Assembly (NCBI GenBank): GCA_902798385.1 | Contig: CADBWK010000005.1 | Span: 1-64,000, forward strand | Length of the DNA stretch: 64,000 nt | Reading direction: 5' to 3' | Origin: an uncultured Bacteroidales bacterium | GTDB lineage: Bacteria > Bacteroidota > Bacteroidia > Bacteroidales > Paludibacteraceae | Part shown: positions 27,148-59,224 of the stretch, piece by piece | Position numbering within the stretch: position 1 is the first letter of the stretch | Layout: every line of letters begins with the position of its first letter | The notes under the pieces: generated by a model | Seen by the model: only the letters and a program-made list of their open reading frames with translations | The model's database searches: none | What the model was told of the DNA's origin: nothing | Made by a program: the position numbers and the translations under genes

Positions 27148-27265
27148 GATTTATTGATTTTCTTTTATCGAGTCTTTATTTACAAAACTGCTCTTATAAA
27201 TAAATTTACCGATCATTTTTCTAAATAAATCCTCTGATTTTTATAAAAATCAAAATCAATAAATC
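27148..27265 (-). repeat. Palindromic element A (reverse orientation)
   Basis: The 14-nt arms GATTTATTGATTTT (27148-27161) and its exact complement (27252-27265) enclose a core that matches the other copies when read on the minus strand: AAATAAATTTAC near 27198-27209 is the reverse complement of the GTAAATTTATTT core. It lies between the GxxExxY stop and tgt. Confidence 0.85.
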
Positions 27266-27292
27266 TTTGAAAATAATCGAAAATATCAAAAA

Positions 27293-27739
27293 TTAAAATA
27301 CTTCTATTTGACCATTATTCATATAGTATCGCTCAATCTGAGCTTTTGGGTATGCCCCAAAATTAACCAATATAGCTACCGGCCAGCCGGTTCCTCGTAA
27401 ATATCCGAATGTTTGATAGTGTTCGCGCTCTGTTAGTTGCGTCAACGCTTTGCATTCAATGATTATTCGACCAATACTGCTCTCTACCACCAAATCCATT
27501 TTAAGGTAAGCTTTCATCTCTTTTCCTTTGTATAGAGGGTGGTATTCAAGTTCCTTATATACAATGTATCCGGCTGCTTCCAGTTCAGTAGTTAGGGCTT
27601 CTTGGTAGATATATTCCGGTAGTCCGGCTCCAAGTTGGTTGTGAACCTCCTGCATACAACCGATAATACCGTAACAAGCCTGTTTCAGTTCTTGCCGTTT
27701 CGGTTCCTCTACAATATGTATGGTCGTTTTCTCCGCCAT
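27293..27739 (-). CDS. GxxExxY protein, predicted PD-(D/E)XK nuclease fold (copy 1)
   Basis: A 148-residue protein of the GxxExxY family. The name-giving motif reads GLPEYIYQEAL (about 39-49), and the predicted nuclease core shows the Asp of KMDLVVESS and the IIIECKAL motif, i.e. D...ExK. The family has no established function; a nuclease is predicted from the fold. It lies between panD and tgt on the same strand and is bracketed by palindromic elements A and B within 28 nt on each side. No promoter of its own was found; it may be read through from panD. The second copy at 37016-37459 has the same arrangement. Confidence 0.85.
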   Translation of the reverse strand: MAEKTTIHIVEEPKRQELKQACYGIIGCMQEVHNQLGAGLPEYIYQEALTTELEAAGYIVYKELEYHPLYKGKEMKAYLKMDLVVESSIGRIIIECKALTQLTEREHYQTFGYLRGTGWPVAILVNFGAYPKAQIERYYMNNGQIEVF

Positions 27740-27761
27740 GAAAAATATTTTTGGTATTTTT

Positions 27762-27886
27762 ACTGATTATTGATAGTAATTCGCAGAAAAGGAAGATTTA
27801 TTCGGATAAGATATATCAAATTTATTTGTAAATATGTTATCGGAATAAAGATTCAAAAACACGTAGTGATACGATCAATAATCAGT
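27762..27886 (+). repeat. Palindromic element B
   Basis: Exact 13-nt arms ACTGATTATTGAT (27762-27774) and complement (27874-27886) enclose the shared core AAATTTATTTGTAAAT (near 27819-27834) and AAGATTC. It lies directly upstream of the GxxExxY start and ends 20 nt before the panD stop. Its orientation is opposite to element A. Confidence 0.85.
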
Positions 27887-27906
27887 ATTTTTTATATATT
27901 TTTCTT

Positions 27907-28248
27907 TTATAAATGGTTATTCACTGGAAAAACAATCGCGGGTTTGAAAAGACGCGCCTCTTCCGGCTCCATGAGGGCATAGGCCATGATGATGACCGTG
28001 TCTCCTACGTTCACCAGATGCGCTGCAGCGCCGTTGATGCATATGCATCCCGAGCCGCGCTTGCCGGGAATGACGTAGGTCTCCAGCCGTGCGCCGTTAT
28101 TGTTATCCACTACTTGTACGCGCTCGCCGGCATAGATATTCGCCGCTTCCATAAGCGCCTCATCGATGGTGATTGAGCCGATATATTCCAAATTCGCCTC
28201 CGTTACCTGCACCCGATGAATCTTCGATTTCAGTATATTTAATAGCAT
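27907..28248 (-). CDS. panD: Aspartate 1-decarboxylase proenzyme
   Basis: A 113-residue pyruvoyl enzyme producing beta-alanine for pantothenate and coenzyme A. The self-cleavage site Gly24-Ser25 is clear ([11 protein letters not shown]), as are Tyr58-equivalent and substrate residues in [18 protein letters not shown] and the [19 protein letters not shown] core. The start at 28248 is set by this geometry and lies 21 nt after the promoter -7 box; the longer open frame upstream is not used. Other pan genes are not nearby. Confidence 0.95.
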
Positions 28249-28268
28249 CTCTAAAACTTTTGCGGCTG

Positions 28269-28299
28269 CAAAAGTACTGCTTTTTTTTGACATACGCAA
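28269..28299 (-). promoter_or_regulatory. Promoter of panD
   Basis: Minus strand: TTG 28297-28299, 20-nt spacer, TACTTTTG 28269-28276. It directly follows the terminator at 28308-28335. Confidence 0.78.
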
Positions 28300-28307
28300 A
28301 TTTTTAT

Positions 28308-28335
28308 GCAAAAAAGAACCCCGAAGGGTTCTCTT
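28308..28335 (-). terminator. Intrinsic terminator (module copy 1)
   Basis: Minus-strand hairpin GAACCC-TTCG-GGGTTC followed by a T-run, ending the 61-residue gene's transcript. The segment of about 45 bp around it, including the next promoter's -33 box, is identical to one at 29272-29316. Confidence 0.88.
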
Positions 28336-28352
28336 TGCTTTTATTCTCGAGC

Positions 28353-28385
28353 GCATCTCGTGAGCATCTCGTGAGCATCTCGTGA
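28353..28385. repeat. Tandem repeat, 3 x 11 bp
   Basis: Three perfect consecutive copies of GCATCTCGTGA lie downstream of the 61-residue gene. There is no spacer, so it is not a CRISPR. Confidence 0.9.
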
Positions 28386-28428
28386 CCATTACGGATGTCC
28401 TAGATGGGTCTAATTCCGGGCAATAGTA

Positions 28429-28614
28429 CTAAGAAACGGCATTAACTTCTGCTTGGATTTCTTCGTCAGTCAGCGCAGCCTTACTGCCTGAGCATGCTTC
28501 TATAAAGCGAGCAACGGGGTTGCGGCGACTCTCAATAGTCCATCCCATACGACTTGCAAACTGCATTATCAGCGCTACGTCTGTAGTCGGCATTTTTAAT
28601 ACTACATCTTCCAT
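28429..28614 (-). CDS. Small antitoxin-like protein
   Basis: A 61-residue protein starting MEDVVLKMPTTDVALIMQFA and ending with an acidic helix LTDEEIQAEVNAVS. Short Bacteroidota proteins with a degenerate first half and a TDEEI-type tail are often antitoxins of type II systems, but no partner toxin is adjacent, so this is only a suggestion. It has its own promoter whose leader is a near copy of the leader in front of the 44-residue gene at 29075-29209, pointing to cassette duplication. A terminator follows at 28308-28335. Confidence 0.6.
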   Translation of the reverse strand: MEDVVLKMPTTDVALIMQFASRMGWTIESRRNPVARFIEACSGSKAALTDEEIQAEVNAVS

Positions 28615-28643
28615 AAATCTTTATTTCTTTACCTTTGACGCTG

Positions 28644-28674
28644 CAAAAGTACTGCTTTTATTTGAATTATGCAA
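28644..28674 (-). promoter_or_regulatory. Promoter of the 61-residue gene
   Basis: Minus strand: TTG 28672-28674, 20-nt spacer, TACTTTTG 28644-28651. The transcribed leader GCAGCGTCAAAGGTAAAG is repeated at the 29245-29275 promoter. Confidence 0.78.
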
Positions 28675-28703
28675 ATTAAATTATTCAAATTCAATAATTT
28701 TGC

Positions 28704-28739
28704 ATAAAAAAACGGTAAACCGTGATTGGATTACCGTTT
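28704..28739 (-). terminator. Intrinsic terminator
   Basis: Minus-strand hairpin AAACGGTAA...TTACCGTTT followed by TTTT closes the two-gene toxin-antitoxin-like operon. Confidence 0.8.
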
Positions 28740-28757
28740 CTGTATTGTGATTAGGTC

Positions 28758-29078
28758 TTAATCGAAAAGCAATTCGTGAAGAGCTTCGTACACGACAACG
28801 ACTTTATCTCCGGATGGTAATGTCTCAATTTTGTATCCAAAATGAAAACCATCTACATAATAATCCTTGTATCCTTTTCGTATCCATGGAATATGCCTAA
28901 CCTCTCTATTATCGGTTAGAGCATATTTGCCAAGATCCTTTAACGCAAGAATAAGACGTTGTTCTTTCTTTAAAACAGTGACCTCATCTAAAGCTGGATG
29001 TTTCTTGAGACTGATTTTGTAAAAATCCGTCAAATCCAAGAATACACCATCATCTATGCGTACTTCTAATTCTATCAT
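28758..29078 (-). CDS. Possible RelE/ParE-like toxin (hypothetical)
   Basis: A 106-residue basic protein, beta-rich toward the C-terminus (WIRKGYKDYYVDGFHFGYKI then VVVVYEALHELLFD). Size, the ending in a beta-hairpin, and coupling to a tiny upstream gene by an ATGA overlap resemble RelE/ParE-type toxins with their antitoxins, though I cannot identify catalytic residues with certainty. It could equally be an unrelated conserved hypothetical. A good terminator follows at 28704-28739. Confidence 0.6.
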   Translation of the reverse strand: MIELEVRIDDGVFLDLTDFYKISLKKHPALDEVTVLKKEQRLILALKDLGKYALTDNREVRHIPWIRKGYKDYYVDGFHFGYKIETLPSGDKVVVVYEALHELLFD

Positions 29079-29209
29079 CCGTGAAAATGGTTATGGATAA
29101 TACGCTTCAATGTCACATCCAACTCTTCGATAGTATGTAGGCTATTCCATTTTTCTTCCGAAATAGTGCCTGCATTTGGCATAATCGGTTGTTTTAATGT
29201 TGCTTCCAT
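29075..29209 (-). CDS. 44-residue protein, possible antitoxin
   Basis: A tiny gene encoding MEATLKQPIMPNAGTISEEK followed by a short helix and ending NHFHG. The ATG at 29207-29209 lies 36 nt after a good promoter, and its TGA overlaps the ATG of the 106-residue gene (ATGA), typical of coupled toxin-antitoxin pairs. It is too short for domain assignment. The shared leader with the 61-residue gene strengthens the case that it is real. Confidence 0.65.
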   Translation of the reverse strand: MEATLKQPIMPNAGTISEEKWNSLHTIEELDVTLKRIIHNHFHG

Positions 29210-29244
29210 AATTGTATGTTTTTATTTCTTTACCTTTGACGCTG

Positions 29245-29275
29245 CAAAGGTACGACATTTTTCTGATATATGCAA
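29245..29275 (-). promoter_or_regulatory. Promoter of the toxin-antitoxin-like operon
   Basis: Minus strand: TTG 29273-29275, 20-nt spacer, TACCTTTG 29245-29252, directly after the terminator at 29285-29312. Confidence 0.78.
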
Positions 29276-29284
29276 ATTTTTATG

Positions 29285-29312
29285 CAAAAAAGAACCCCGA
29301 AGGGTTCTCTTT
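29285..29312 (-). terminator. Intrinsic terminator (module copy 2)
   Basis: Same hairpin GAACCC-TTCG-GGGTTC plus T-run as at 28308-28335; it ends the transcript of the large surface-protein operon. Confidence 0.88.
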
Positions 29313-29319
29313 GCTTGTA

Positions 29320-29685
29320 TTATTCCGCTCTCTTTTTGCGGCGGAGGGAGATGATGAGGCTGAAGGCTGCTGCGCATAAGAGCAACGGCCATAAACCATC
29401 CCCGAGAGGGTATGCCTCGGACTGACCGGTCTCACCTGGCTTCGGGAAACGACGTATAGTACGTGCGCTTGAGTTGTCTCCGGCTGCCACTGGATGGTAC
29501 TCAGACGGGGCGCTTTCGCCAAACGGCTCATACACCGTTCCTTGGTACAATGCCCCTTTCTGCATGATTTGTTGGCTTTGTATTGCCTGATTATTTGTCT
29601 GCGGCGTGTAGGTCTGAGCTGTGGCAATGAGTGTTACCACGCTCAGTATCGCAATGATCATAACTATCTTTTTCATGTTTTTCAT
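29320..29685 (-). CDS. Small exported membrane-anchored protein
   Basis: A 121-residue protein with an N-terminal signal segment (MKKIVMIIAILSVVTLIATA, cleavage near ATAQ), a Gln/Ser/Pro-rich middle and a C-terminal transmembrane helix (LWPLLLCAAAFSLIISL) capped by RRKKRAE. That hydrophobic-plus-basic end looks like a membrane stop-transfer tail. It follows the 2033-residue gene by 23 nt and is the last gene before the terminator. No known family recognised. The ATG at 29685 is used; an ATG nine bases further in is also possible. Confidence 0.7.
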   Translation of the reverse strand: MKNMKKIVMIIAILSVVTLIATAQTYTPQTNNQAIQSQQIMQKGALYQGTVYEPFGESAPSEYHPVAAGDNSSARTIRRFPKPGETGQSEAYPLGDGLWPLLLCAAAFSLIISLRRKKRAE

Positions 29686-29708
29686 AATACGCAACGTTTA
29701 AAGATTAG

Positions 29709-32700
29709 TTATTTAATCATTGTTCCGCGAACGTCATACATCTTACCATCCTTGACGATATAGAGTATGCCGTCGATAAGTACTTTACGCGCTCCTGTAA
29801 CCGGTAATCCGTCACCCGTAACCTCTTCAATGCCTGTTGTAGCATTGTGTATCGGCGAGATCTCCAATACGAAGCGGTTGTCAATAGTACCTGCCATCAG
29901 GTTAACGGTGTAATCGAGTGCGCTGAGGTTCGTGCGGGTATTGGCTACGTTATCAATGAGCGTCACACCAACTCCGCTGGTGCCATCCGGAATAGCGAAG
30001 GTGTATTCGCCTGCTTTGGTAATCTTTACACCTACCGGCACTAACGTTGTCTGGTCAGTCATTGGCATAGTATTACCCGCGGACGGGATATAACCCTCAA
30101 TGAAAGTATAGACATTTGCCTTGCCATCGTTGAATTCTTTATCTAAGTCTTCTCCGAATGCGAAGTTGGTGCTTGCCTCCTCATCGTTGCTCAGTTTAAC
30201 GAAGGTCTGGTCAATCATCTTGTCGTTCTGTGTCAGTTCTAACTTGAACTCTACGTTCTCCGACTCTTCGGCATAAGTGCGACGCGCTACTATGGATGGT
30301 GTTGCACTTGCCAATGTCCAACGTAACGTACCTGCATATTGTACGTAGTATGCGTGCATGGCCTTGAAGTTATACTTCGTTCCGCTTTGAACTGTATAGG
30401 TGTTATCGTTGGCGTTCCATTCGTACAAGAATGGTAGACCGTCAGCCTTCGGGTTGACTTGCCATGTGATATTACTACTTCCGTTCGACAACGTACTGCC
30501 GTAATTTGCATAACTCGGTACACCGATAATATTCCAGTGACTATCGGCTATACGGCGGTCGTTGTTCCAATCCGGGGTAGATTTGTCCGTACGGCGGTCG
30601 ATGGTACACTCATGGTCAGGAACAGTCACATTAACGGTAGTCTGCGAGATAGTACCAGTCGTCGAAGATGTGGACGGGAAGAATAGCTCTACTTGCTGGA
30701 TTTGGTTATTCCAGAAGGTATTGTCATTCGCTTTCATCAATTCCAGTTCGAGCGCCAGCACATAACCTCTTCCGGCTTTGAGCGTCACGCCACGACGATC
30801 CTCAATGTATGTCCAGAATCCTTCATCGTTATCTTTCCAGTACCCGATACGAGCGCGCTCAGCGCCATTGTAATCCATCATGATCCAGTGTGTACCATAC
30901 GTACCGAAACCGAATACCTCACTCAGGTTGACATCGAACGGGAAGGATATCCAGTATAATGCACGCTCATAGACGGATTTCATACTACCGGCACCTACCA
31001 GCGGGTGGAATTCTGCTATGTGTGCATCCGTATCGCCATGCTCTTTTATGTGGTCTTCAGGATGTTGACGGTTGTTCAGTATCCAGCGGTTGAAACGCAT
31101 AACACCATAAACCGTCTTGACATCGGTCAAGGCAGAAGCGGGATTCGCAAAGGTAATCTGTTGACCCGCCTCTTGATGCTCGCGAATAACCATGATATCT
31201 GCATTGATATCTAATGTGCCATCTATTTCTGCGTTATCCGGAAGGTATGCAGCTATAAGTCGGTTTGTCTTGAAGTCATATACAACACGCACTTTACAAG
31301 GATCTCCAGTGCCGCCGATTATCTCAATGTAATTGGCACTATTAGTCCAGTTGTTAGATGCATACGCGCCGCGGAAGTACTGCGAACCGTTTTCAGAAGG
31401 AGAATCTTGCGCGTAACTTGCATACAATTTAAACTTAGCACTCGGCGTCACCTTGATCTCGCGTTCATAAATCCAGTCTTCATCATCTTGGAAGATGACC
31501 TCATAAATGTTGTTTGTCCCATCTCTCGTTTCGCCGGTACCGGAAATATTCGTACCATCTCCATTCCAGAATTCAGTATTACTGCGGAGAATAAGGAACT
31601 TGCGGGTTGTGTTGGTGGACGAACTCATGTACGCACGACTAATCTTATTCGTCGATTCATTGTACATGAAGCGGATATTTGCGCTATATTTATCGCTAGT
31701 CTCATCGGAACTGGGCGTAGTACCACTATAAGACACAGCTTTTAATTCTCCATCCGCTCTGCCACCCAAATCGTTCTCATAGATATTTTGGTACGGATCG
31801 TCTATATCTTTGATCAACGTATCGGTGATACACATGCTATAATCGTTCGCGATAACAAACTTCACGTTCATTCCACGCGGACACCAATGCATGTAATAGT
31901 GCGTAAACAACTCTCCAAACTTGTTCGTGCTACGACTCTTTGAGAATTCTGAATAAGTCATCTGGTGGTCGGTTGCTCGGTAATTCTCCCATTTGGTGGA
32001 GCCGGCACAGTCGGTTCGGATATAGTAGTTGCCTGTGTACGGTTCAACTTTGCTGACACGGATTGTGCCAGCCGTTTGTGTGAGATGGAAATTATAAACA
32101 CCAGATTTTGATATGGTATCTACGGCCGATATGCCTCCGCTCTCAACATCCAGCCATGTTACAACTCCAGTTCCTGCGTTAATAGCATCCGCATACTGGA
32201 ACTTCATACTTGCGCTCGCGCCACCTGCTTTGCTGATATAGAACGAAACGATATCTTCAGCACCATTTTGTTTGTGAATAGTACGGGATGGGTGGTACCA
32301 GCTTGCACCGTGTGCCGAACTCTGTGACCATGCCACGCGGTCGTTATATACGATACGATAGTCGCCGACTGCGGCTGGATACTTAACGCCTACAAGGTAT
32401 TTGTATTTACTACTACCATCTAATCCATAGGATAACTTGAAAATATACTCTCCAGCAACAGTGGTTGTAATGCCAACACGCTGGTTATCGGTCAAATCTT
32501 TTCCACTTTCGTAGCCGTTATCACTACTCGTTATCGTTGTGGTCTTACCGAGAACAGAACCATCTGCGCGGTGGATCTCAAATCCGTATGTTCTTGACGC
32601 ATTCAGTTCTATAGTCAACTCCATAGGGAGAGTCTTGTCCGGTGTAAATTCAAACGGTATTGAACGTATCAAGTCAGAAGTATTATATGTTGCGCTGTTG

Positions 32701-35700
32701 TAAATTTTCAGCGTATAGCCTGTGTTCTCCGGATAGTTCATCCAGTAACCATCACTCATATACTCTGCTTTATCACTATTCTTTTTCTGTTTTGTCTGTC
32801 CGGTAAGCGGAACAAACATTGGCATAGATGTTTTGTGGTCTCCACGGCGAATAACTTGGATAGGATTCGCTGTGGTGTTGCTGAAATATGCGTGGTCGTT
32901 ATCCGGAGCTTGCGCTTCATGATTATCAGGATTGTCTCCGGATTGGTCTCCCATGTTAGTGAAAGCCACATTTGCGCGAGTACTATAACCAGCGGCTGTG
33001 TAATCGAAATACCAGATATCAGTTCCTTCTATTTGGGTCATATGGCCGCGCTCCATTTCCCAATAAGGTCTATTTCCGGAAAAAAGTTGTCCTTTCCACG
33101 CTCCTGTACCATAACCATCACTCCAGTATTTGTCTGAGTTATAAAAATAAACCCATACATCAGTCCATCCAAGTGTATTATTGAAGTAGATAACATTCTT
33201 CTTGTTGTACACCGCAGTCAGCGTTCCATCATAAGTTGCTTTGAGGTATATTTTTGAAGTAGTAGTTGTTGAGCCGTCTATAGCCGAAGTACTATCGGTA
33301 CTGATCGTTACGCCATCACCGGCTACCCAATGGTCAAATGTGTATCCGGTGATAGTAGCTGGAGTGATGCCCTTTGACCACTCTAACGGCTTAATACCCT
33401 CCCTCTCAGAGGAAGCAGCCAATGTCCGTCCACTTCCATCTTGATACTGAATCGTCACGGTGTGTTCGCCGGCAACGACGAGGTCGGCTACAACGGAGTC
33501 AAGAACCGTTCCTCCAGAGCACGAAGAACCTGTACGAAGTATACATGCTACTTTATAACTACCGCTTGTTGCCGGAGCGTCGAAGCTAACAGCATTGCCT
33601 TCGCCCGGAGCCCACTCTGTCGGCTGCGGATCCATCGGGTTGCCGTTAGCACGGAGTAACTTCCAACACAACATTTTATCTCCTACAGGTGCCGGATAAA
33701 TCGTCGGCGTCGCTGTTACGGATTCTCCCGGTGCTTGTGTACTAGGAGTCAATACCAAACTGGTTATCTCCGCTTGCTTGTAGTATGCGTAGAGGGTCAC
33801 ATTGCCGTCGTGAATCCACTTTTTGTTTGCATCGGTGTAGCCCGCAACTGAAGCAATCCATGTACCATCGTAGTTGATGAGTTTCGTACCTGTACCATTA
33901 TGGTCAGTATAGTATCCTTCCAATCCGTAACTGTCTTCTGCGGTCGGGAGATTCGGAACAGTAACTGTCGCTGTATTAAAGGTAACGTTTTGGCTTCCTG
34001 TTGCACCGGCAATAGTGCCTTTATGATCCTCGTCAAGATCGAATGTAACGGTATAATTATTAGGATCCCACCATGCCTGAAGTGTACAGTCTTCTGCCTT
34101 ACTCCATTTGCTGGAAGTGATATATCCACTTACGTTATTAGCAGCAAACGAATGATCACTATTCAGTACCTTTGTTGATGTAGAAGGAACATACCAGCCT
34201 TTGATGTGGTATCCTGTTTGCGTGATGCTTCCATCTACAAAAGTCGTAAATGAACCTGCATCATAATCTATGGTCGCGGTACCGCTTCCGCTTCCGCCTT
34301 CCCCATGAGACAGGGTAACGTTGTAGGTGTGTGCTGTCCAATGCGCATATAGGGTTTGATTGGATGTGACATTCCAAAGACTACTGCTGTTTGTGTAAGC
34401 CGTGCTGGCTTGAAGAGTTCCATTTGCTGTTGCAATGAGAACCGGTGTCGCATCATTGGTGTAATATCCTTCCACATTATAGCCGGTTTTTGTTGGTGCA
34501 GAAATGCTGGATAAGGAATTCTTACCGTGCGTAGCAGTAGCGGAACCATTATGCGATCCCCCATTATTATCATTCAGCGTTACGCTTGAAGTGGATACCT
34601 TCCAATAAACCGTTTTCTCTTTTACAGAACCATATAATGCGGATGAATTATTCTTTAGCCGAGCCTTGTATGTCCAATTCTGATTAGTTGTTTGCGTTAC
34701 ATTAGTGTGAGATTGACTGATATATGTACCTGATGTTCCATAATTGCTACCATCTGTTGAATATTGAGGAGAAGAGTTGGCATCGGTTGAAGCTTGAGTC
34801 GCACTAGAAAGTCCAAACGTAATAGTACCATCATGCGTTACCAAATACGGACTTCCTTCTGTACCACTACCGCTGCTAAGATATCCGGAACCGGATGGAG
34901 TAATGGTAAAATCTGACGTGGCCGGAGGAGATACATTGTAGTAATAGGTATATGTCTTTGTTCCCGCAGAACCATATGTTACCGTTACTGTTACAGTAAT
35001 GCCATTTGCACCAGAAGCATTCGGAGTGACAGAAGAAACAGTAATACTTGAACCTGATCCTGTATTAGATTTCGTAGAAGCGATATTACCAGATACAGAC
35101 AAATTTGTAAGTGTCGCTCCTACTGGGTAGTCGCTTATGGTAGCTGTGATATTTGTCAACGTACCAGCAACTAACGAACTTGTACCAGTAATTGTTATAG
35201 TAGGATCGGGAATAGTATAAGAAATGTGGTAGTTCCCTCCGTTATTGTTCCAATATTTTTGGTTGTCATAACATCCAGAAGTGCCTCCACTATTACCATT
35301 TATAGCAAAATAAAAATCGAAGTAATAACTGCCAGGTTTTCTATTGCGAATTAGGTCAATCCCAACTGATGTGTTTTTGTATTGTTCTACTGCCCACCAA
35401 TTATCCCAAGTCCAATTTCCATAACCGTCATTATTATATCCAGCTTGTACATTACTTCCCTTGCTTCCATCACGAGATGTATTTATACCATAATTCATTT
35501 TTACATGGCACACGTTACCGTCATGTTTCTTTATGATAGCGCGAAATTCCGAGATACTTAAGTTTGTTTTAGAACCAAGCGATATATCACTTTCTCCATC
35601 ATCTGCAAGATTTTTTTGTGTGGTTCCGGCATCCGTGACGTATTTAATCCATACGTCATCGGCCTCTTTGTGTAAGAAATCGCAGTTATCTCCTCCCCAC

Positions 35701-35810: not shown

Positions 35811-35839
35811 AATATTATGTATTTTTCAATTTGTATTTT

Positions 35840-35877: not shown

Positions 35878-35878
35878 T

Positions 35879-36433
35879 TTAATACCCTCTCACTTCTTTC
35901 CTGGCTGCGGACATTCGCTCTTTAATGCCACCTTCTTCCAAAAACGTCCTTTCTACTTTCTTTAAGTATGAGAGCATTCCTCTATCAGCTTGATGAATGA
36001 GTGTTAGAGCTACATTACAAAACTCTTCAATAGTCCATTTCTCATAGAACGGCGTAAAGTCCTGTAATTCATGATGCCGATAACAGTATTGTACCATTTT
36101 GTCGTATCGAGGATGTCCTTTATCCCATTGTTCCAATCTTCTGGATCTCAATTGATCTTCATAATCCTCTAATAATTCCAACAAACTTCCCCGTGCGGTA
36201 TTCAGCAATTTAATCTCCATTTCAATGCTAGTCATCCCATCTGCTGTTCCCTCTACGACATTTTGCTTTCCGCTACGAGCAGCTTGCTCCATTTGATCTT
36301 TTGTGCGGTCACCTCGAACTAAGTAACGGTTTTGATACCAGTAGGTCATATCGTATAAGATGGTTGCTTTCTTATAGAAGAGCAAATCTCTATAATTGAC
36401 CGGATTTGGTAGGAATCCATTCTTGTTGTTCAT
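35879..36433 (-). CDS. Four-helix-bundle protein (23S rRNA intervening-sequence family)
   Basis: A 184-residue, mostly helical protein of the four-helix-bundle/IVP (S23) family. The N-terminal helices YRDLLFYKKATILYDMTYWY and QMEQAARSGKQNVVEGTADG carry the typical QAxRSGxxNIxEG-like signature, followed by LLEDYEDQLRSRRLEQW and a C-terminal extension (about 120-184) as in longer Bacteroidota members. The family was first noted as ORFs in 23S rRNA intervening sequences; its function is unsettled. It lies between direct repeats at 35840 and 36453 and between a promoter (36570-36600) and the 2033-residue gene, as if inserted into that gene's leader. Confidence 0.88.
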   Translation of the reverse strand: MNNKNGFLPNPVNYRDLLFYKKATILYDMTYWYQNRYLVRGDRTKDQMEQAARSGKQNVVEGTADGMTSIEMEIKLLNTARGSLLELLEDYEDQLRSRRLEQWDKGHPRYDKMVQYCYRHHELQDFTPFYEKWTIEEFCNVALTLIHQADRGMLSYLKKVERTFLEEGGIKERMSAARKEVRGY

Positions 36434-36452
36434 GGGTGTGCCTTTTGTAGTT

Positions 36453-36678: not shown

Positions 36679-36797
36679 CCGACATTAAATGTTGCACTTC
36701 GTGCTTGGTGTATTAGTCGCTTGATCATCTATAAAAGTAAACTTTTCTATCTGCTCAATCGTCTAATCCACACTCTGCGAGTAACATTCAATGTCGG
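36679..36797. repeat. Long imperfect palindrome (element G)
   Basis: CCGACATTAAATGTT (36679-36693) pairs with 36783-36797 with one mismatch, TAGTCGCTTGATCA (36714-36727) with 36752-36765 with three mismatches, and AAAAGT (36733-36738) with ACTTTT (36741-36746). It is not related in sequence to elements A-F or H. It and element C occupy most of the 36601-37015 gap; I see no gene there. Confidence 0.8.
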
Positions 36798-36866: not shown

Positions 36867-36988
36867 CTTTTGAATGATAGAACACGATGTGTGGTGGGTA
36901 TTGATGATAAAAAGTATCCGGGAATTTATTTACGAGGACTTTTTAACAGCAATAGACACAAGGAGCAAAGCTCAATATCATTCAAAAG
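36867..36988 (+). repeat. Palindromic element C (divergent member)
   Basis: Exact 13-nt arms CTTTTGAATGATA (36867-36879) and complement (36976-36988) enclose GAATTTATTTACGAGGAC (near 36920-36937), close to the core of element D. Flanks TTTTTTTATGTTTTTGCT and GTGTTTTATATGTTTTTTTC are shared with D. The arms themselves share nothing with the other copies. Confidence 0.78.
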
Positions 36989-37483: not shown

Positions 37484-37606
37484 CTGATTATTAAGTTTAA
37501 TTCGTAGAATGGAAGATTATTTGGATAATGTGGTCTGTAAATTTATTTACGAGAACACATTAGCGAAATAAGATTCATAGTACGCAGTACTAAACTTAAT
37601 AATCAG
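37484..37606 (+). repeat. Palindromic element D
   Basis: Exact 16-nt arms CTGATTATTAAGTTTA (37484-37499) and complement (37591-37606). The core GTAAATTTATTTACGAGA and AAGATTC are shared with B, E and F. Where E has TTGATTTTA, D has TTAAGTTTA in both arms, a compensated change. Confidence 0.88.
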
Positions 37607-52947: not shown

Positions 52948-52961
52948 GATGTGATTTAATA

Positions 52962-54074
52962 TTAAGTAAGATTAATTGTAAATTCTTTGATACGTTGCTC
53001 CTCGGATTTCTTGCAAACCAGCAGGGCGCCTCTCTCCTCCACAATAATCATATCGTTCACGCCTTGCACAATCGCTACTTTTCCCGGCTCGAGCACCACA
53101 ATGTTGCCTTCTGCCTCATGGTAATGGGTCTCGCTGTGCAGACTGACATTGCCATGCTCGTCTTTCTCGCTCAACTCATACAACGAACCCCATGTACCGA
53201 GATCGCTCCAACCGAAACTGCTCGGCAGCACATATACATTGTCCGCTTTCTCCATGATACCGTAGTCGATGGAGATATTCGGGCATTTGGGGAACATCAC
53301 CTCGATGAAATCCTCCTCTTTGTCCGTACCCATCAGCAACTCGCCCTCTCTAAATCGGTCGGCTACCTCGGGTAGCAGATAACGGAAAGCCTCACTGATC
53401 GTCTGTAGGTTCCAAACGAAGATACCGCTGTTCCAGAGGAAATCACCGCTCTCCAAGAACACTTTCGCCATCTCCAGCTCCGGCTTCTCCGTAAAGGTCT
53501 TCACCGGATAGATGCCGTCTTCAAACATGTCCGGCTGACGTTGAATATAGCCGTATCCCGTCTCCGGTCGGGTAGGCTGCATACCCAGCGTCAAGATGGC
53601 TTTGTTGCGACTCACAAAATCAAACGCCTTCAGAATCGTTTGGCGGAATTTCTCCTCTTCGAGGATCAGGTGGTCACTCGCAGCGACCACAATATTCACC
53701 TGCATCTCCGGTCGACTCCAGTCCTGGTTAGCCGCTGTCAGACCGGCTTTGCGCAGACAGATAGCACGGATATGCGAGGTGGCGTACGCAATACACGGCG
53801 CCGTGTTACGACGCGCCGGCTCACAAAGAATCTGCCCCTCGTCCAAATCGGGAACCTGCTCCAAGATCGTCTGCTTATACATCACGTTCGTCACGATGAA
53901 CATATTCTCGATCGGAACGATCGGGCGAAAACGATCCACCGTCATCTGCAATAAACTGCGACCCGTACCGAAGAAATCCAAGAACTGTTTCGGCTTATCT
54001 GCCCTGCTGTACGGCCAAAAACGGCTACCAACGCCGCCCGCCATGATCACGCAATAATTGTTGTTTTTAGCCAT
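52962..54074 (-). CDS. manC: Mannose-1-phosphate guanylyltransferase
   Basis: A 370-residue cytoplasmic enzyme making GDP-mannose from mannose 1-phosphate and GTP. The signature MAGGVGSRFWPYSRADKPKQ opens the protein, and GYGYIQRQ, KTFTEKPELE and GWSDLGTWGSLYE are conserved further on. The isomerase domain of bifunctional ManC is absent. It heads the long minus-strand run with the glucan cluster, from the promoter at 54094-54124. GDP-mannose would feed surface glycans or protein glycosylation. Confidence 0.95.
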   Translation of the reverse strand: MAKNNNYCVIMAGGVGSRFWPYSRADKPKQFLDFFGTGRSLLQMTVDRFRPIVPIENMFIVTNVMYKQTILEQVPDLDEGQILCEPARRNTAPCIAYATSHIRAICLRKAGLTAANQDWSRPEMQVNIVVAASDHLILEEEKFRQTILKAFDFVSRNKAILTLGMQPTRPETGYGYIQRQPDMFEDGIYPVKTFTEKPELEMAKVFLESGDFLWNSGIFVWNLQTISEAFRYLLPEVADRFREGELLMGTDKEEDFIEVMFPKCPNISIDYGIMEKADNVYVLPSSFGWSDLGTWGSLYELSEKDEHGNVSLHSETHYHEAEGNIVVLEPGKVAIVQGVNDMIIVEERGALLVCKKSEEQRIKEFTINLT

Positions 54075-54093
54075 GCTTTTGAATATTTGGCTG

Positions 54094-54124
54094 CAAAGAT
54101 ACGAATAATTTTTTATATATGCAA
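54094..54124 (-). promoter_or_regulatory. Promoter of the manC-GDE-GT4-GH57 operon
   Basis: Minus strand: TTG 54122-54124, 20-nt spacer, TATCTTTG 54094-54101, with an alternating GC stretch directly upstream of the -33 box. Confidence 0.75.
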
Positions 54125-54182
54125 GCGCGCGCGCATTTTATTTAGGAAAAAGTATCTTTTTGTTCAAAAAGTACGAAAATAG

Positions 54183-54213
54183 TTGTGTATGTCATTTCTT
54201 TTGACTACTTTTG
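54183..54213 (+). promoter_or_regulatory. Promoter of gldD
   Basis: TTG 54183-54185, 20-nt spacer, TACTTTTG 54206-54213. It leaves a leader of only 10-15 nt, so gldD must start at 54222 or, more likely, 54231. Confidence 0.72.
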
Positions 54214-54230
54214 TGACCAAAATGGGGAGA

Positions 54231-54803
54231 ATGCGAAAAATATTGCTTATCATAGGAGTAGGGTTGGCTTGGATGTCCTGCGGTCGGGTCTCGACCCCAC
54301 GTCCGTACGGATACTATCGGATCACCACGCCGGACACGGCCTACGTGCCTTTCTCGGCGCAATATGCGCACTATCCGTATAATTTTGCCCTGTCGCAAAA
54401 TGCCGTGGTCAAACCCCGTACGGATGTCTCTGAACCCTATTGGATCAATATCTTTTACCCCGCGCTGGATGCTACGATTCACTGCTCTTACAAGCCGGTG
54501 AACCACAACCTGCGCGAACTAACCGACGATGCACTCGAGTTCGTGTATCGGAACGCCTCGTTCGCTTCGGCGATACCCGAGAGTGACTACACCCATCCCG
54601 AAGCCCGCGTCTATGGCGTACTCTTCGATCTGGAGGGAAATACCGCTTCGTCCTGTCAGTTCTTTGTAACCGATTCCACGCACCATTTCTTCCGTGCCTC
54701 GGTGTATTGCAACTGCCCGCCGAATGCCGATTCCTTGGCGCCCGTTTACGAATACCTCCGCAAAGATGTCATCAAAATGGTAGAAACGTTTGAATGGAGA
54801 TAA
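54231..54803 (+). CDS. gldD: Gliding-motility-type lipoprotein GldD
   Basis: A 190-residue lipoprotein with a lipobox LAWMSCGR (lipidation at Cys17). The mature part carries GldD features: PRPYGYYRI, PFSAQYAHYPYNF, EPYWINIFYPALDATIHCSY and FFVTDSTHHFFRASVY. GldD is associated with type IX secretion in Bacteroidota, which fits the CTD proteins in this window. The start at 54231 is used because longer frames overlap the promoter. It overlaps the GGGPS-TadA gene by 10 bp. Confidence 0.9.
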   Translation: MRKILLIIGVGLAWMSCGRVSTPRPYGYYRITTPDTAYVPFSAQYAHYPYNFALSQNAVVKPRTDVSEPYWINIFYPALDATIHCSYKPVNHNLRELTDDALEFVYRNASFASAIPESDYTHPEARVYGVLFDLEGNTASSCQFFVTDSTHHFFRASVYCNCPPNADSLAPVYEYLRKDVIKMVETFEWR

Positions 54804-55939
54804 ACAAGAAACATAGTTTGGCATTGTTGTTGGATCCGGAGAAAGCGAATCTGGACGCTCTTCCGATCTCGGAGTCCTGCCATCCCGACTATCTCTTTGT
54901 CGGCGGTTCCACCGGCGGTGACACAACGGACTTTGTGCGCCATCTAAAATCGCTAATCGCTAATCGAAAATCGAGAATCCCCATCATTCTCTTCCCTGGA
55001 AATTCGTCACAATTTACCTCGGAGGCGGATGGCATCTTGTTCCTCTCGTTGCTTTCAGGAAAGAACCCGGAATACCTTGTGAATCAGCAGATTAAGTCAG
55101 CGCGGGCGATCCATGATTCGCAACTGGATTTCGTCCCAACGGCGTACATCCTCATCGACGGCGGCGTAGAGACCTCCACCATGCGCGTCACGGGTACACA
55201 ACCCCTCGATCCTCACGACATCGACACGATCGTGGATACCTGTATCGCGGCAGAACTGATGGGAAAGAAAGCGATCTATTTGGAGGCAGGGTCGGGAGCC
55301 ATTCATCCTGTCTCGCCGGAGATCATCCAAGCCGTGCGCTCCCATACCTCCGTTACCCTCATTGTGGGTGGCGGAATCCGTACACCCGAGGCGATGAATG
55401 CCGCCTACAAGGCCGGCGCTGACATCGTGGTCATCGGCAATCATTTCGAAGAGCATCCCGAAGACTTGGAAAAATTTACTACTGCTCCTAGTGTTCCTGG
55501 TTCTTCTCCCGATGACGAGAAATACATGTCTCTTGCCCTCGCCGAAGCCCGCAAAGCGCTCGCTGCCAACGAGATCCCCATCGGTTGTGTCATCGTCTCG
55601 CAAAACCAAGTCATCGGGCGCGGGCATAACCTGACCGAGATGCTCGAAGACGTCACCGCTCACGCGGAGATGCAGGCTATCACGGCCGCCACCCAAACGC
55701 TCGGCGGTAAGTACCTGCCCGATGCCACGCTCTACGTCACGGTCGAACCCTGCCCGATGTGTGCGGGAGCTATCGGTTGGGCGCAGATCAACCGCATCGT
55801 CTATGGTACACCCGATCCTAAACGCGGTTACACCACCTACGCCCCGCGGGTCTTCCATCCCAAAGCAACCGTCACGGCAGGTGTCCTCGAAGACGAATGC
55901 CGCGCCCTCATACAAGAATTTTTTAAATCCAAGCGATAA
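54794..55939 (+). CDS. Fusion: geranylgeranylglyceryl-phosphate synthase + tRNA adenosine deaminase
   Basis: A 381-residue frame with two complete enzymes. Residues 1-228 are a GGGP/heptaprenylglyceryl-phosphate synthase (PcrB-like TIM barrel): LALLLDPEKANLDAL, DYLFVGGSTGG, GGGIRTPEAMNAAYKAGADI and VIGNHFEE. Residues about 243-381 are TadA, which makes inosine at the tRNA-Arg(ACG) wobble position: VTAHAEMQAI and TVEPCPMCAGAIGWAQ carry the zinc site and catalytic Glu. The joint FTTAPSVPGSSPDDE is encoded by a degenerate tandem repeat. An ATG at 55527 could allow internal initiation of TadA alone. A second repeat tract encodes SLIANRKSR in the first domain. Confidence 0.9.
   Translation: MEINKKHSLALLLDPEKANLDALPISESCHPDYLFVGGSTGGDTTDFVRHLKSLIANRKSRIPIILFPGNSSQFTSEADGILFLSLLSGKNPEYLVNQQIKSARAIHDSQLDFVPTAYILIDGGVETSTMRVTGTQPLDPHDIDTIVDTCIAAELMGKKAIYLEAGSGAIHPVSPEIIQAVRSHTSVTLIVGGGIRTPEAMNAAYKAGADIVVIGNHFEEHPEDLEKFTTAPSVPGSSPDDEKYMSLALAEARKALAANEIPIGCVIVSQNQVIGRGHNLTEMLEDVTAHAEMQAITAATQTLGGKYLPDATLYVTVEPCPMCAGAIGWAQINRIVYGTPDPKRGYTTYAPRVFHPKATVTAGVLEDECRALIQEFFKSKR
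54946..54980. repeat. In-frame degenerate tandem repeat in the GGGPS domain
   Basis: About five ATCGCTA/ATCGAAA units encode LKSLIANRKSRI without breaking the frame. Confidence 0.75.
55479..55510. repeat. In-frame repeat at the GGGPS-TadA joint
   Basis: Units of the type CTCCTAGTG/TTCCTGGTT, related to the intergenic repeat at 19965-20001 and to 58771-58812. Confidence 0.7.
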
Positions 55940-55981
55940 ATGCAAATCTCAAATCTTAAATCACTCATCACCAATTACAAA
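55940..55981. repeat. Degenerate tandem repeat at the pgpH start
   Basis: AAATCTC/AAATCTT/AAATCAC units followed by CACCAATTACAAA. It contains the start codon and codons 2-14 of pgpH. Confidence 0.75.
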
Positions 55982-57838
55982 TACACCCCGGCGGTGCTCC
56001 GTTTGAGCTGCTTTGCCATCCTGGCTGCCGTCCTCGTGCTTATGTTCCCGCGTTACAACAACGCCTTCCGCTATCATTACGAGATTGGTAAGCCCTGGGG
56101 CTATAACACCTTGACCGCCGATTTTGACTTCCCGATCTACAAGACGGAGGATCAGTTGGCAACGGAGCAGGCCCAACTGCTTTCCACCTTCGCACCTATC
56201 TTTAATTATATCCCGCGCGTGCAACGCGAGGTGAAGGTGGTGTCGCTGGAGACGATGGATTGGTTGCAGGCCGAGGGCTATACGCGTATCACCCTTCAGC
56301 AGAAAAAATACCCGCTTTCGGAGATATACACGCCTAAGTCCGCTTATGCCAAATACGGCTATGAGATCACGACGAACCTCGTCCTGGACACCGTACGAAC
56401 GATGGACATGCGTGCCAAACTGCTGGCAACCCTCTCGCCCACACAAGGACTCGTCCAGAAAGGCGAGAAGATCATCGAGAAGGGTGAGGTGGTGACTGAG
56501 CGCAATTATCAGGTCCTGCAGTCCCTCCGCCGCGCGTACGACGATGAGTCGCTGGGGAACAAACAGCGTACGCTCTCCATCCTCGGCGAGGCGATGTTGG
56601 TGACGCTTTTCCTCTGCCTGTTTGTGGTCTATCTATATGTCTTCCGCCGCTCTTACCTGCGCTCAACCTCCACGGTGTTGTTCTTCTGCCTGCAGATGTT
56701 TATCGTTATCGCCTTGGCTTGTCTGGCGCTGCGTTTCGGGCTATCAGTCTACCTCATCCCCTTCGCTTGGGTGCCTATCCTGACGCGTGTCTTCTTTGAC
56801 TCCCGCACCGCCCTCTTCCTGCATTTCACAACCATCCTCATCACGTCGATTGTTGTGCCGGCGCCGGTAGAGTTCTTCTTCATCCAGATCGTGGTCGGCA
56901 TGGTGGCTATCTCCTCGCTGGGTGACATGACGCGCCGCGCCCAACTCGTACAGACCGCCGCGTGGATACTCTTCGCGCAGGTCATCGCTTATACCGCGAT
57001 CACTTTCGCCCAGACCGGCGCGTGGTCGTCTATCGATCCGTGGATGTACCTGTATTTCGCGATATGCGCACTGCTGACAATCGGATGCTACGGTCTGATC
57101 TATGGTTTCGAGAAACTCTTCCGTTTCATCTCGTCCATCACGCTGGTCGAACTCACAGATATCAACTCCGAACTGCTCCATACTCTTGCCGAACGTGCTC
57201 CGGGTACGTTCCAGCACTCGATGCAGGTGTCTAACCTCGCGGCGGAGGCTGCCAAGGCCATCGGTGCCAACGCCCTGCTCGTGCGAACGGGGGCGCTCTA
57301 CCACGATATCGGTAAGATCACCGATCCGCTCTACTATGTAGAGAATCAGACTGGCGTGGAGAACCCGCTCCTCAAGATGGATCCGCGGGATGCCGCACAG
57401 GTGGTGATGGCGCATGTGACGGAAGGAGAGAAGATTGCCCGTCGCAATCACTTGCCCGAAGTGATCATCAATTTCATCACGACCCACCACGGCACGTCCC
57501 TCGTGCGTTATTTCTACAACACCTACTGCAACGCCCATCCGAAGGAGCAAGTCGATGAGTCGCTCTTCCGTTATCCGGGTACGAAACCCAGCACGAAAGA
57601 GGGAGCTATCCTCATGATGGCCGATGCCATCGAGGCACGTTCGCGCAGCCTCGATAGCTTCACCGAAGAATCGATTGCCAAGGCGGTTAATCAGATGATT
57701 GATGCCCAGATAGCCGACGGCCAGTACGCCGAGACACCGCTGAGTTTTAAGGATGTCGAGGACATCCGCCGCGTCTTCACCGCTCGCCTCATCGCCATGA
57801 ACCATCATCGCATATCCTATCCATCGTTGAATCAATAA
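55940..57838 (+). CDS. pgpH: 7TM-HD protein, PgpH-type c-di-AMP phosphodiesterase
   Basis: A 632-residue membrane protein: N-terminal helix (about 20-38), an extracytoplasmic 7TMR-HDED sensor region (40-185), seven transmembrane helices (200-400) and a C-terminal HD domain with FQHSMQVSNLAAEAAKAI, ALYHDIGKITDPLYYVENQT and FITTHHGTSLVRYFY. The HD residues needed for metal binding are present. Homologues hydrolyse cyclic di-AMP. The first 15 residues (MQISNLKSLITNYKY) are encoded by a short tandem repeat and are probably a recent N-terminal addition. The gene follows the fusion gene without a gap. Confidence 0.9.
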   Translation: MQISNLKSLITNYKYTPAVLRLSCFAILAAVLVLMFPRYNNAFRYHYEIGKPWGYNTLTADFDFPIYKTEDQLATEQAQLLSTFAPIFNYIPRVQREVKVVSLETMDWLQAEGYTRITLQQKKYPLSEIYTPKSAYAKYGYEITTNLVLDTVRTMDMRAKLLATLSPTQGLVQKGEKIIEKGEVVTERNYQVLQSLRRAYDDESLGNKQRTLSILGEAMLVTLFLCLFVVYLYVFRRSYLRSTSTVLFFCLQMFIVIALACLALRFGLSVYLIPFAWVPILTRVFFDSRTALFLHFTTILITSIVVPAPVEFFFIQIVVGMVAISSLGDMTRRAQLVQTAAWILFAQVIAYTAITFAQTGAWSSIDPWMYLYFAICALLTIGCYGLIYGFEKLFRFISSITLVELTDINSELLHTLAERAPGTFQHSMQVSNLAAEAAKAIGANALLVRTGALYHDIGKITDPLYYVENQTGVENPLLKMDPRDAAQVVMAHVTEGEKIARRNHLPEVIINFITTHHGTSLVRYFYNTYCNAHPKEQVDESLFRYPGTKPSTKEGAILMMADAIEARSRSLDSFTEESIAKAVNQMIDAQIADGQYAETPLSFKDVEDIRRVFTARLIAMNHHRISYPSLNQ

Positions 57839-57875
57839 ATATAAAGTATTTTATAAAGTATTTTTGGTATTTTTG

Positions 57876-57997
57876 GATGATTGATTTTAATTCGATAGAA
57901 TAGGAAGATTGTTTTGGTAATGTTCATTGCAAATTTATTTGTGAATGAATGTTAGCAAAATAAGATTCGTAGGTACGTAGTACTAAAATCAATCATC
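57876..57997 (+). repeat. Palindromic element E
   Basis: Exact 14-nt arms GATGATTGATTTTA (57876-57889) and complement (57984-57997). An inner stem TTCATTGCAAA/TTTGTGAATGAA surrounds TTTA, and the core AAATTTATTT and AAGATTC are shared with B, D and F. It fills the pgpH-dus gap. Confidence 0.9.
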
Positions 57998-58030
57998 TAT
58001 TTTTATTATAATTTTTCTTTTTTTCTTTTA

Positions 58031-59044
58031 ATGAATAATAAATACCCATTATATTTAGCGCCGATGGAGGATGTCACCGATCCAGCCTTCCGCATGCTCT
58101 GCAAGCGTTATGGCGCGGATCGTGTCTATACGGAGTTCGTGAACGCCGACGCTCTTGTGCGCGACATCGCTTCCACGACCCGTAAGCTCACCATCCATGA
58201 CGAGGAACGACCGGTGGCGATACAGATCTACGGTCGTGAACCCGAGTCGATGGCAGAGGCCGCCCGCATCGTCGAGACTGCCAAACCTGACTTCATCGAC
58301 ATCAATTTCGGTTGTCCGGTCAAGAAAGTAGCAGGCAAAGGCGCCGGGGCAGGACTGCTTCGCGATGTGCCCAAGATGCTCGAGATCACCAAAGCCGTCG
58401 TCAACGCCGTGCAAACACCGGTTACCTGCAAAACCCGCCTCGGATGGGATGAGAACTCGCTCTACCTCGAGGATGGAACGCCCTTCATCGTCGATCTGGC
58501 GGAGCGGCTCCAGGACTGCGGCATCCGGGAACTCGCCATTCACGGTCGAACCCGCTCGCAGATGTACCGCGGCGAAGCCGATTGGACGCTTATCGGCGAG
58601 GTGAAGAACAATCCGCGTATACACATACCCATTATAGGAAACGGAGATGTGTGCACTCCCGAGCGCGCGAAGGAGTGTTTCGATCGTTACGGCGTCGATG
58701 CGATCATGGTCGGCCGTGCCACCTTCGGTGCACCCTGGCTCTTCGCCGAGATGCGCGAACTCCTCGACGATCCTAGTTCTCCTAGTGCTCCTAGGATTCC
58801 TAGGCCGACTAGCTTCGAGGAAAAGGTCGCTGTCCTCAAAGAGCATGTCCTCGCCTCGATCGCTTGGTGCGGCAACGACGAACGCAAAGGTATCGTCCAT
58901 TCGCGGCGTCATTTTGCGGCTTCGCCGGTCTTCAAAGGTCTCGATAACTTCAAGCAAACCCGCATCGCCCTCCTCCGCGCCGACACCCTCGATGAAGTCT
59001 TCCGTATAATGGATGAAATAGTAGCCAAATGGTCAAACGAATAA
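58031..59044 (+). CDS. tRNA-dihydrouridine synthase (DusB-like)
   Basis: A 337-residue FMN enzyme reducing uridines in tRNA. The N-terminal LAPMEDVTDPAFRMLCKRYG, INFGCPVKKVAGKGAGAGLL (catalytic Cys), HGRTRSQMYRGEADW and PIIGNGDVCTPE with AIMVGRATFGAPWLF are all present. After this comes a repeat-encoded insert DDPSSPSAPRIPRPTSFEEK before the C-terminal helical domain. Palindromic elements E and F lie on both sides. No promoter was recognised in the upstream gap, so it may be read from pgpH. Confidence 0.94.
   Translation: MNNKYPLYLAPMEDVTDPAFRMLCKRYGADRVYTEFVNADALVRDIASTTRKLTIHDEERPVAIQIYGREPESMAEAARIVETAKPDFIDINFGCPVKKVAGKGAGAGLLRDVPKMLEITKAVVNAVQTPVTCKTRLGWDENSLYLEDGTPFIVDLAERLQDCGIRELAIHGRTRSQMYRGEADWTLIGEVKNNPRIHIPIIGNGDVCTPERAKECFDRYGVDAIMVGRATFGAPWLFAEMRELLDDPSSPSAPRIPRPTSFEEKVAVLKEHVLASIAWCGNDERKGIVHSRRHFAASPVFKGLDNFKQTRIALLRADTLDEVFRIMDEIVAKWSNE
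58771..58812. repeat. In-frame degenerate tandem repeat in dus
   Basis: Five TCCTAGTTC/TCCTAGTGC/TCCTAGGAT-like units encode PSSPSAPRIPRPTS at the boundary between catalytic and helical domains. Confidence 0.85.
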
Positions 59045-59099
59045 AAAAGTATTTTTGATATTTTTGGATGATTGATTTAAATTTTATCTATGTTTATCT

Positions 59100-59224
59100 C
59101 TGATTATTGATTGTAATCTCGGTAGAGATGAAGATTGTTTTGGAAATGTTCATTGCAAATTTATTTGTGAATGAATGTTTACAAAATAAGATTCAGGGGT
59201 ACGTAGTACTAAATCAATAATCAG
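59100..59224 (+). repeat. Palindromic element F
   Basis: Exact 13-nt arms CTGATTATTGATT (59100-59112) and complement (59212-59224). From 59150 to 59180 it is nearly identical to element E, whereas the arms differ from E. An extra unpaired left-arm-like sequence GGATGATTGATTTA lies at 59067-59080, possibly a remnant of an earlier copy. Confidence 0.9.

What the first reader, a model, noticed from the sequence alone, without database searches (positions are those of the whole stretch)
27148..59224. Six palindromic elements with a shared core but covarying terminal arms
Elements A (27148-27265, reverse), B (27762-27886), C (36867-36988), D (37484-37606), E (57876-57997) and F (59100-59224) are 118-125 nt long. 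A core of AAATTTATTT and AAGATTC recurs. The terminal arms are exactly complementary inside each copy (13-16 nt), yet differ between copies: GATTTATTGATTTT in A, CTTTTGAATGATA in C, CTGATTATTAAGTTTA in D, GATGATTGATTTTA in E. Compensated change means pairing, not sequence, is kept, as in a structured RNA or a hairpin DNA transposition intermediate. I know of no described family with this form, but I cannot search.
Basis: seen in the sequence. Interest (0 to 1): 0.88.

Follow-up and report, generated by a model that had tools for sequence, protein, structure and literature searches.

The report
Mobile cloverleaf-folding DNA repeats
A gut bacterium's genome is sprinkled with short mobile DNA repeats that all fold into the same four-armed shape although their letters differ widely, which suggests that whatever moves or uses them reads shape rather than sequence.

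Summary
The six palindromes are real, and a seventh copy lies at 36680-36796 (-). 19 places score below E 1e-6 in this 1.92 Mb, 74%-complete assembly. They share one architecture: variable closing arm, short hairpin, long hairpin with a purine bulge, second short hairpin. In 54 aligned copies 46 of 47 pairs change on both sides, beyond all 500 shuffles. Without alignment, arms pair 11.2 of 12 within copies, 6.0 between. The elements come and go: of 22 panD-tgt loci of the genus 20 are empty; the window and one relative carry element-GxxExxY-element. Some copies nest in others. Rfam: no match in the window at gathering scores or in five other loci at E<=1, tRNAs aside.

Best reading: a new MITE-like intergenic repeat family selected for folding of one strand. 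GNA triloops, and an antisense excess (30:15) between co-directional genes, lean to single-stranded DNA over RNA; this is not proven. No transposase was identified; GxxExxY nuclease is only a candidate partner.

The parts
27148..27265 (-). Element A (palindrome with arms)
   Evidence: R1 48.5 bits, R3 59.7 bits
27762..27886 (+). Element B
   Evidence: R3 73 bits
27293..27739 (-). GxxExxY protein gene (PF13366 / TIGR04256) between A and B; the left ends of both elements face it
   Evidence: block absent from 20 of 22 panD-tgt loci
36680..36796 (-).
   Evidence: 55.7 bits; 77.7 bits
36867..36988 (+). Element C
   Evidence: R3 78.7 bits
37016..37459 (-). second GxxExxY protein gene, between C and D
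37484..37606 (+). Element D
   Evidence: R3 115.7 bits
57859..57875 (+). left flank of E, TATTTTTGGTATTTTTG; the pattern TATTTTTN{1,3}TATTTTTG has 10 hits in the genome (control 1), each at an element or a remnant when looked at
57876..57997 (+). Element E
   Evidence: R3 104.3 bits; site without a model hit in 78 of 80 dusB loci
57998..58020 (+). right flank of E, TATTTTTATTATAATTTTTCTTT
59050..59079 (+). remnant: left flank plus 5' arm of an E-type element, with F just inside it
   Evidence: nested arrangement with both outer arms in L118
59100..59224 (+). Element F
   Evidence: R3 103.9 bits

Best explanation
A family of non-autonomous mobile intergenic repeats (MITE-like, about 120 nt of folded core plus T-rich flanks), abundant in one Bacteroidales genus whose named relatives are ruminant-gut Paludibacteraceae. 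SHOWN: common four-way fold, extreme covariation, presence/absence at orthologous sites, like copies near one another in the same orientation, single cases of one copy nested in another. INFERRED: the form that is recognised is one strand folded as single-stranded DNA (closing arm, two mini-hairpins often closed by C(GNA)G, one long bulged hairpin), working like attC sites or IS200/IS605 ends; a protein supplied in trans reads this shape and moves the element, often to nearby sites on the same strand and sometimes into an older copy. The enzyme is unknown; the PD-(D/E)XK protein GxxExxY, bracketed by elements in this window, is a candidate only.
For: Covariation: 46 of 47 pairs with both-side change, 92.9% of cells paired, 0/500 shuffles; arms 11.2/12 within vs 6.0/12 between copies. 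One strand: forward folds better in 91 of 94 (RNA parameters) and 93 of 94 (DNA parameters); purine bulge in 85 of 94. DNA-type loops: GNA in 46 of 67 hp1 triloops and 62 of 81 hp3 triloops, about 7% expected from composition; GNRA tetraloops 4 and 2 of 94, UNCG 0. Mobility: 20 of 22 panD-tgt loci empty; of 80 dusB loci, 2 have a model hit just upstream and 6 just downstream. Nesting: L118, L111, L090, L067, L032, window F, read by eye. Nearby copies in the same orientation are more alike (29 pairs, 0.713) than opposite ones (17 pairs, 0.515). Between co-directional genes the folding strand is antisense 30 times, sense 15.
Against: No transposase was found: no Y1 transposase in the own genome; no other transposase family was searched. 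No consistent target-site duplication could be read. Likeness by distance alone is not significant (0.64 near, 0.585 far, permutation p 0.06), and the same-orientation pairs come from a few clusters. All 3 hits in family f112 lie sense, directly behind tRNA genes, which suits an RNA role. GNA triloops also occur in RNA (recalled). The 30:15 bias rests on a crude ORF caller and 45 of 94 copies. The nesting statistic over all copies is weak: 9 of 94 reach a 10-nt outer match, 4.5% of the null do.
Confidence: 0.55

Rival explanations
1. RNA-level element: a dispersed structured RNA (ERIC-like mRNA stabiliser or processing site, terminator, or small RNA from its own promoter) for which the RNA fold is selected; mobility is secondary.
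For: Forward strand, with its G-U pairs, is clearly more stable; tandem G-A internal loop common (29 of 94 exact GA/GA); the 3 f112 copies lie directly behind tRNA genes in sense and include terminator-like hairpins (read by eye). ERIC is reported to act on mRNA stability (PMC2229807, section 10).
Against: Folding strand antisense to flanking co-directional genes in 30 of 45; gene-orientation classes around elements (45 co-directional, 11 convergent, 9 divergent of 65) resemble ordinary gaps (117, 15, 18 of 150), so no terminator-like preference; mini-hairpin loops are GNA rather than GNRA/UNCG.
Confidence: 0.3
2. Passive maintenance: template switching at palindromes (quasi-palindrome correction) keeps the arms complementary by mutation alone, with no selection for structure.
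For: In the closing arm nearly all changes are two-sided, with few G-U intermediates.
Against: Conserved asymmetric features survive: purine bulge 85 of 94, GNA triloops, internal loops, G-T over A-C 160 to 42; correction would be expected to erase them and the strand asymmetry.
Confidence: 0.08
3. attC-like recombination sites of an integron-type cassette system: element - accessory gene - element.
For: Structure-only conservation, one strand favoured and an extrahelical base are like attC (PMC2727003, passages); GxxExxY genes, and genes that look like toxin-antitoxin pairs by eye, lie between element pairs.
Against: R-box pair RYYYAAC/GTTRRRY at the ends in 0 of 94; in the eight loci laid out, most neighbours look like ordinary chromosomal genes (by eye); integron integrase not searched.
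Confidence: 0.04
4. REPIN/RAYT system: REP-type hairpins moved by a Y1 transposase.
For: Palindromic, intergenic, one strand favoured.
Against: No Y1_Tnp (PF01797) in the own genome; weak hits in 5 of 15 genus genomes, 4 of 10 with elements and 1 of 5 without; a 120-nt cloverleaf, not a 20-40 nt hairpin (PMC3733652, abstract).
Confidence: 0.03

Closest known systems
ERIC / IRU / RU-1 and other bacterial MITEs (Correia, RUP, RPE)
   Same: 100-200 bp, intergenic, palindromic with a highly paired fold, mobile (PMC2229807, sections 4 and 10)
   Different: Most of those listed have terminal inverted repeats and several a target-site duplication (PMC2229807, Table 1) and they are known by a sequence consensus; here sequence is nearly free (GC 0.19 to 0.55), shape is fixed, and no TSD was resolved
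Integron attC sites
   Same: Little sequence conservation, one folded strand, extrahelical bases, 57-142 nt (PMC2727003, passages)
   Different: No R-box pair in 94 copies; four-way fold; no cassette array recognised
REP / REPIN with RAYT
   Same: Repeated extragenic palindromes thought to be moved by a tyrosine transposase (PMC3733652, abstract)
   Different: No Y1 transposase in the genome; much longer and branched
PINSR of Prevotella intermedia (188 bp)
   Same: Lineage-specific intergenic repeat, probably non-coding, no terminal inverted repeat noted (PMC4755523, passages)
   Different: 177-184 copies with a sequence consensus; no fold in the passages I saw, and its letters were not compared here
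IS200/IS605-type ends
   Same: Hairpins recognised on one single strand (recalled)
   Different: No transposase gene found, no cleavage site shown

Membership tests
MITE / ERIC-like repeat | short, intergenic, non-coding, dispersed copies | tested here: met
   19 places in own genome; 65 of 94 copies could be placed between two ORFs
MITE / ERIC-like repeat | presence/absence at orthologous sites | tested here: met
   panD-tgt 2 filled, 20 empty of 22; dusB sites
MITE / ERIC-like repeat | target-site duplication | tested here: inconclusive
   a 7-8 nt repeat AATGAATA seen by eye at the E site of L110 only; nothing regular at the other sites compared by eye
MITE / ERIC-like repeat | parent insertion sequence sharing the ends | tested here: inconclusive
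   left-flank pattern of one flank type hits 10 places in the genome, all elements or remnants, no IS; other flank types and other genomes not searched this way
REPIN/RAYT | Y1 transposase in the genome | tested here: not met
   0 in own genome, weak hits in 5 of 15 genus genomes; own assembly 74% complete
Integron attC | R boxes RYYYAAC/GTTRRRY at both ends | tested here: not met
   0 of 94
Integron attC | integron integrase | not tested
   no search made
Integron attC | structure conserved without sequence, one strand favoured | tested here: met
Any Rfam 15 family | match to a covariance model | tested here: not met
   window at gathering: only a tRNA; L207, L214, L220, L221, L030 at E<=1: only a tRNA
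PINSR | sequence similarity to the consensus | not tested
   the consensus is in a figure that is not held

The most novel reading that the evidence does not exclude
A transposable-element class recognised purely by the three-dimensional shape of a folded single-stranded DNA cloverleaf, free to change nearly every base pair, that moves locally on one strand, homes into its own older copies and is served by a PD-(D/E)XK nuclease of the GxxExxY family carried between paired elements.
Probability: 0.12. Interest if true: 0.9.

Novelty: new variant of a known kind. Interest (0 to 1): 0.66.

Why it matters
Bacterial repeat families are usually found by sequence; this one keeps an elaborate four-armed fold while GC content runs from 19% to 55%. 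A DNA search with element E found the core of only 8 of the 19 places in its own genome. If the fold is read as single-stranded DNA it is a rich natural data set for shape-only DNA recognition, and it gives a concrete lead on GxxExxY proteins, a name that only two papers of the library hold. If it is read as RNA it is a structured RNA family of Bacteroidales that Rfam did not match in what was searched.

Tried and rejected
REPIN/RAYT (no Y1 transposase in own genome). attC (no R-box pair). Own-promoter small RNA: the left flank TATTTTTG resembles the Bacteroidetes -7 box (recalled), but a similar motif stands on the right side too and I saw no -33 box by eye, so I dropped it; no promoter scan was run. 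Integron-like arrays: in the eight loci laid out most neighbours look like ordinary chromosomal genes (by eye). Regular target-site duplication: not found by eye. Plasmid and phage records: one copy tried against each, no match. Outer-arm statistic for nesting over all copies: 9 of 94 reach 10 nt, the null in 4.5%, so nesting rests on single cases. GxxExxY as obligate enzyme: G002, G006 and G032 carry elements but show no PF13366 gene (90%, 84% and 76% complete). A literature query on 23S rRNA intervening sequence proteins failed on a format error and was not repeated. Viral and metagenome collections were not searched.

Full report
WHAT WAS CHECKED. There is a seventh copy, G, at 36681-36795 on the minus strand (36680-36796, 77.7 bits). 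Rfam has only a tRNA in the window at gathering scores.

ARCHITECTURE. Each copy has a closing arm (12 modelled pairs, 13-16 in the window's best copies), a short hairpin (hp1), a long hairpin (hp2, 26 modelled pairs) with internal loops and, as a rule, a single bulged purine on its 3' side, and a second short hairpin (hp3), meeting in a four-way junction. A lacks a clear hp3. T-rich flanks stand on both sides and by eye resemble one another as direct repeats (left ...TTTTATTTATGTTTAT, right GTTTTATATGTTTTTTTC in many copies). The left-flank pattern of the E type has 10 hits in the whole genome, control 1, and the right one, with one mismatch allowed, 7, control 0; all 10 and 7 are at elements or remnants when looked at.

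HOW MANY, AND WHERE. Covariance models from six copies (R1), 11 (R2) and 54 (R3) were used. R3 finds 19 places below E 1e-6 in the own genome, counting each place once, plus one doubtful at 1.5e-4. One of the 19, C12:48605-48728 (67.5 bits), I had found by its flanks alone; R1 did not hit it and it is in no training set, so R3 recognises an unseen copy of quite different sequence. A longer class (148 nt, contig C33: one complete, one without its left arm, one cut by the contig end) has similar flanks but gave no model hit. R2 hits 25 of 120 genomes, own genome included, all of one genus among 48 (30 candidates scored per genome). The best named dusB relatives are labelled Paludibacteraceae or uncultured Bacteroidales, many from ruminant gut; the window's own name is not given. 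In 393 genomes of the order R3 hits 5: the own one, one of the same genus, and three from two other families (9 candidates scored per genome). A closer look at 39 genomes (93 candidates each) gives 4 with hits, G317, G283, G284 and G430, the same as before. Diverged copies elsewhere may be missed. In family f112 all 3 hits (tRNA-Pro, tRNA-Arg, tRNA-Val; two genomes) lie directly behind the tRNA and in sense; the 2 hits of f111 do not.

COVARIATION. In 11 aligned copies 31 of 47 pairs change on both sides; in 54 copies 46 of 47, 672 cells, 92.9% paired, with 0 of 500 shuffles as high on any measure and slid controls at 38-46% paired. These alignments were fitted to the structure. A test that needs none: in 94 distinct copies (134 matches at E<=0.001 reduced to 101 places by keeping the better strand, then to 94 by dropping duplicates), 12-nt arms pair at 11.2 positions within a copy (42 perfect, 79 with 11 or more) and 6.0 between copies; mean arm identity between copies is 0.50. 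GC of the element runs from 0.19 to 0.55.

WHICH STRAND, WHICH NUCLEIC ACID. The forward strand folds better in 91 of 94 copies with RNA and 93 of 94 with DNA parameters; G-T pairs outnumber A-C mismatches 160 to 42. Of 67 hp1 triloops 46 are GNA, of 81 hp3 triloops 62, against about 7% expected from composition; the RNA favourites GNRA (4 and 2 of 94) and UNCG (0) are nearly absent. C(GNA)G stands in 38 hp1 and 51 hp3 loops of 94. Short hairpins such as GCGAAGC are described as unusually stable DNA hairpins (PMC10527192, passages; the generalisation to GNA is recalled). The apical loop is T..A or C..G in 88 of 94, and a bulged purine is present in 85 of 94. Between co-directional genes (45 of the 65 copies that could be classed, out of 94) the folding strand is antisense in 30 and sense in 15, which does not suit a structure working in the mRNA of its neighbours. 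The classes co-directional/convergent/divergent are 45/11/9 around elements and 117/15/18 in gaps without one, so there is no terminator-like preference. Together these lean to folded single-stranded DNA; the tRNA-linked copies of f112 lean the other way.

MOBILITY. In 22 genus loci where panD and tgt could both be placed (2 of 24 lacked panD), 20 have 0-93 nt between them and no GxxExxY; the window (779 nt) and G003 (842 nt) have element-GxxExxY-element. R3 over 23 of these loci hits G003 only. Of the 80 dusB loci kept, 7 hold 11 distinct elements (12 matches, one the second strand): 2 within 200 nt upstream and 6 within 200 nt downstream of dusB. In the 33 of 80 printed, the other gaps are short or hold unrelated sequence as far as the eye tells. 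The same site can hold different elements: the six filled downstream dusB sites have six different arms, two of them alike, and the B site of G003 has another element than the window.

NESTING AND LOCAL COPYING. In L118 a complete element stands between the two arms of another (GATGATTGATTT ... AAATCAATCATC) with its flanks; window F shows the same with the right outer arm lost; L111, L090, L067 and L032 are similar by eye. In the own genome 5 of 17 neighbouring gaps (18 copies used) are under 1.5 kb (0.25 expected, maximum 3 in 5000 simulations). Copies within 10 kb in the same orientation are alike (0.713, 29 pairs), opposite ones are not (0.515, 17 pairs; far pairs 0.585, 230); near against far without orientation gives permutation p 0.06, and a few clusters supply most of the same-orientation pairs (59 of 94 copies, 7 genomes). 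Of 8 neighbours within 300 nt, 7 are head-to-head (- then +), 1 is - -, none is tail-to-tail. This suits strand-preserving local movement; recombination between direct repeats would also make them alike.

THE GxxExxY LEAD. Both PF13366 genes of this genome lie between two elements. Of 14 such genes in 10 genus genomes, 7 have an element within 500 nt by the coordinates; about 1% would be expected for a random place in a genome with 20 copies (my arithmetic). Against it: other element pairs enclose dusB or genes that look like toxin-antitoxin pairs by eye, and three genomes with elements (G002, G006, G032) show no PF13366 gene. No experiment or search links the protein to the element beyond neighbourhood.

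VERDICT. A real, structure-conserved intergenic repeat family that comes and goes at orthologous sites; kind known (MITE-like), form not in Rfam 15 for what was searched nor in the literature I could search. Its enzyme and its working form are open.

Noticed in passing
L219, L221, L230 (family f112 genomes G284, G430): Cloverleaf elements stand directly behind tRNA-Pro, tRNA-Arg and tRNA-Val genes, followed by a shared GGATCACG motif; L221 has a second partial copy behind the first.
   Followed up: partly
window 62055-62090 and 62252-62287; a similar one in L033: A second palindrome, AAAAAATGACATGCGCACTTGCGTGTGTCATTTTTT, in two copies 160 nt apart.
   Followed up: no
window 28704-28745; similar in L033 beside a small ORF: Hairpin AAAAACGGTAA...TTACCGTTT next to a small ORF (28758-29078) without Pfam or NCBIfam match at E<=0.001; by eye the neighbour in L033 looks like a toxin gene of a toxin-antitoxin pair.
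   Followed up: no
window 35879-36433 (-): Four helix bundle suffix protein (TIGR04258; weak PF05635, 23S rRNA intervening sequence protein, below its cut-off), next to elements G and C.
   Followed up: no
L034 (G000:C26:23563-23614): Left flank, one arm and right flank without any palindrome: a deletion remnant or footprint of an element.
   Followed up: partly
G000 contig C33, L033: Longer (148 nt) elements of related form and flanks around a small ORF pair; no hit with R1 or R3.
   Followed up: partly
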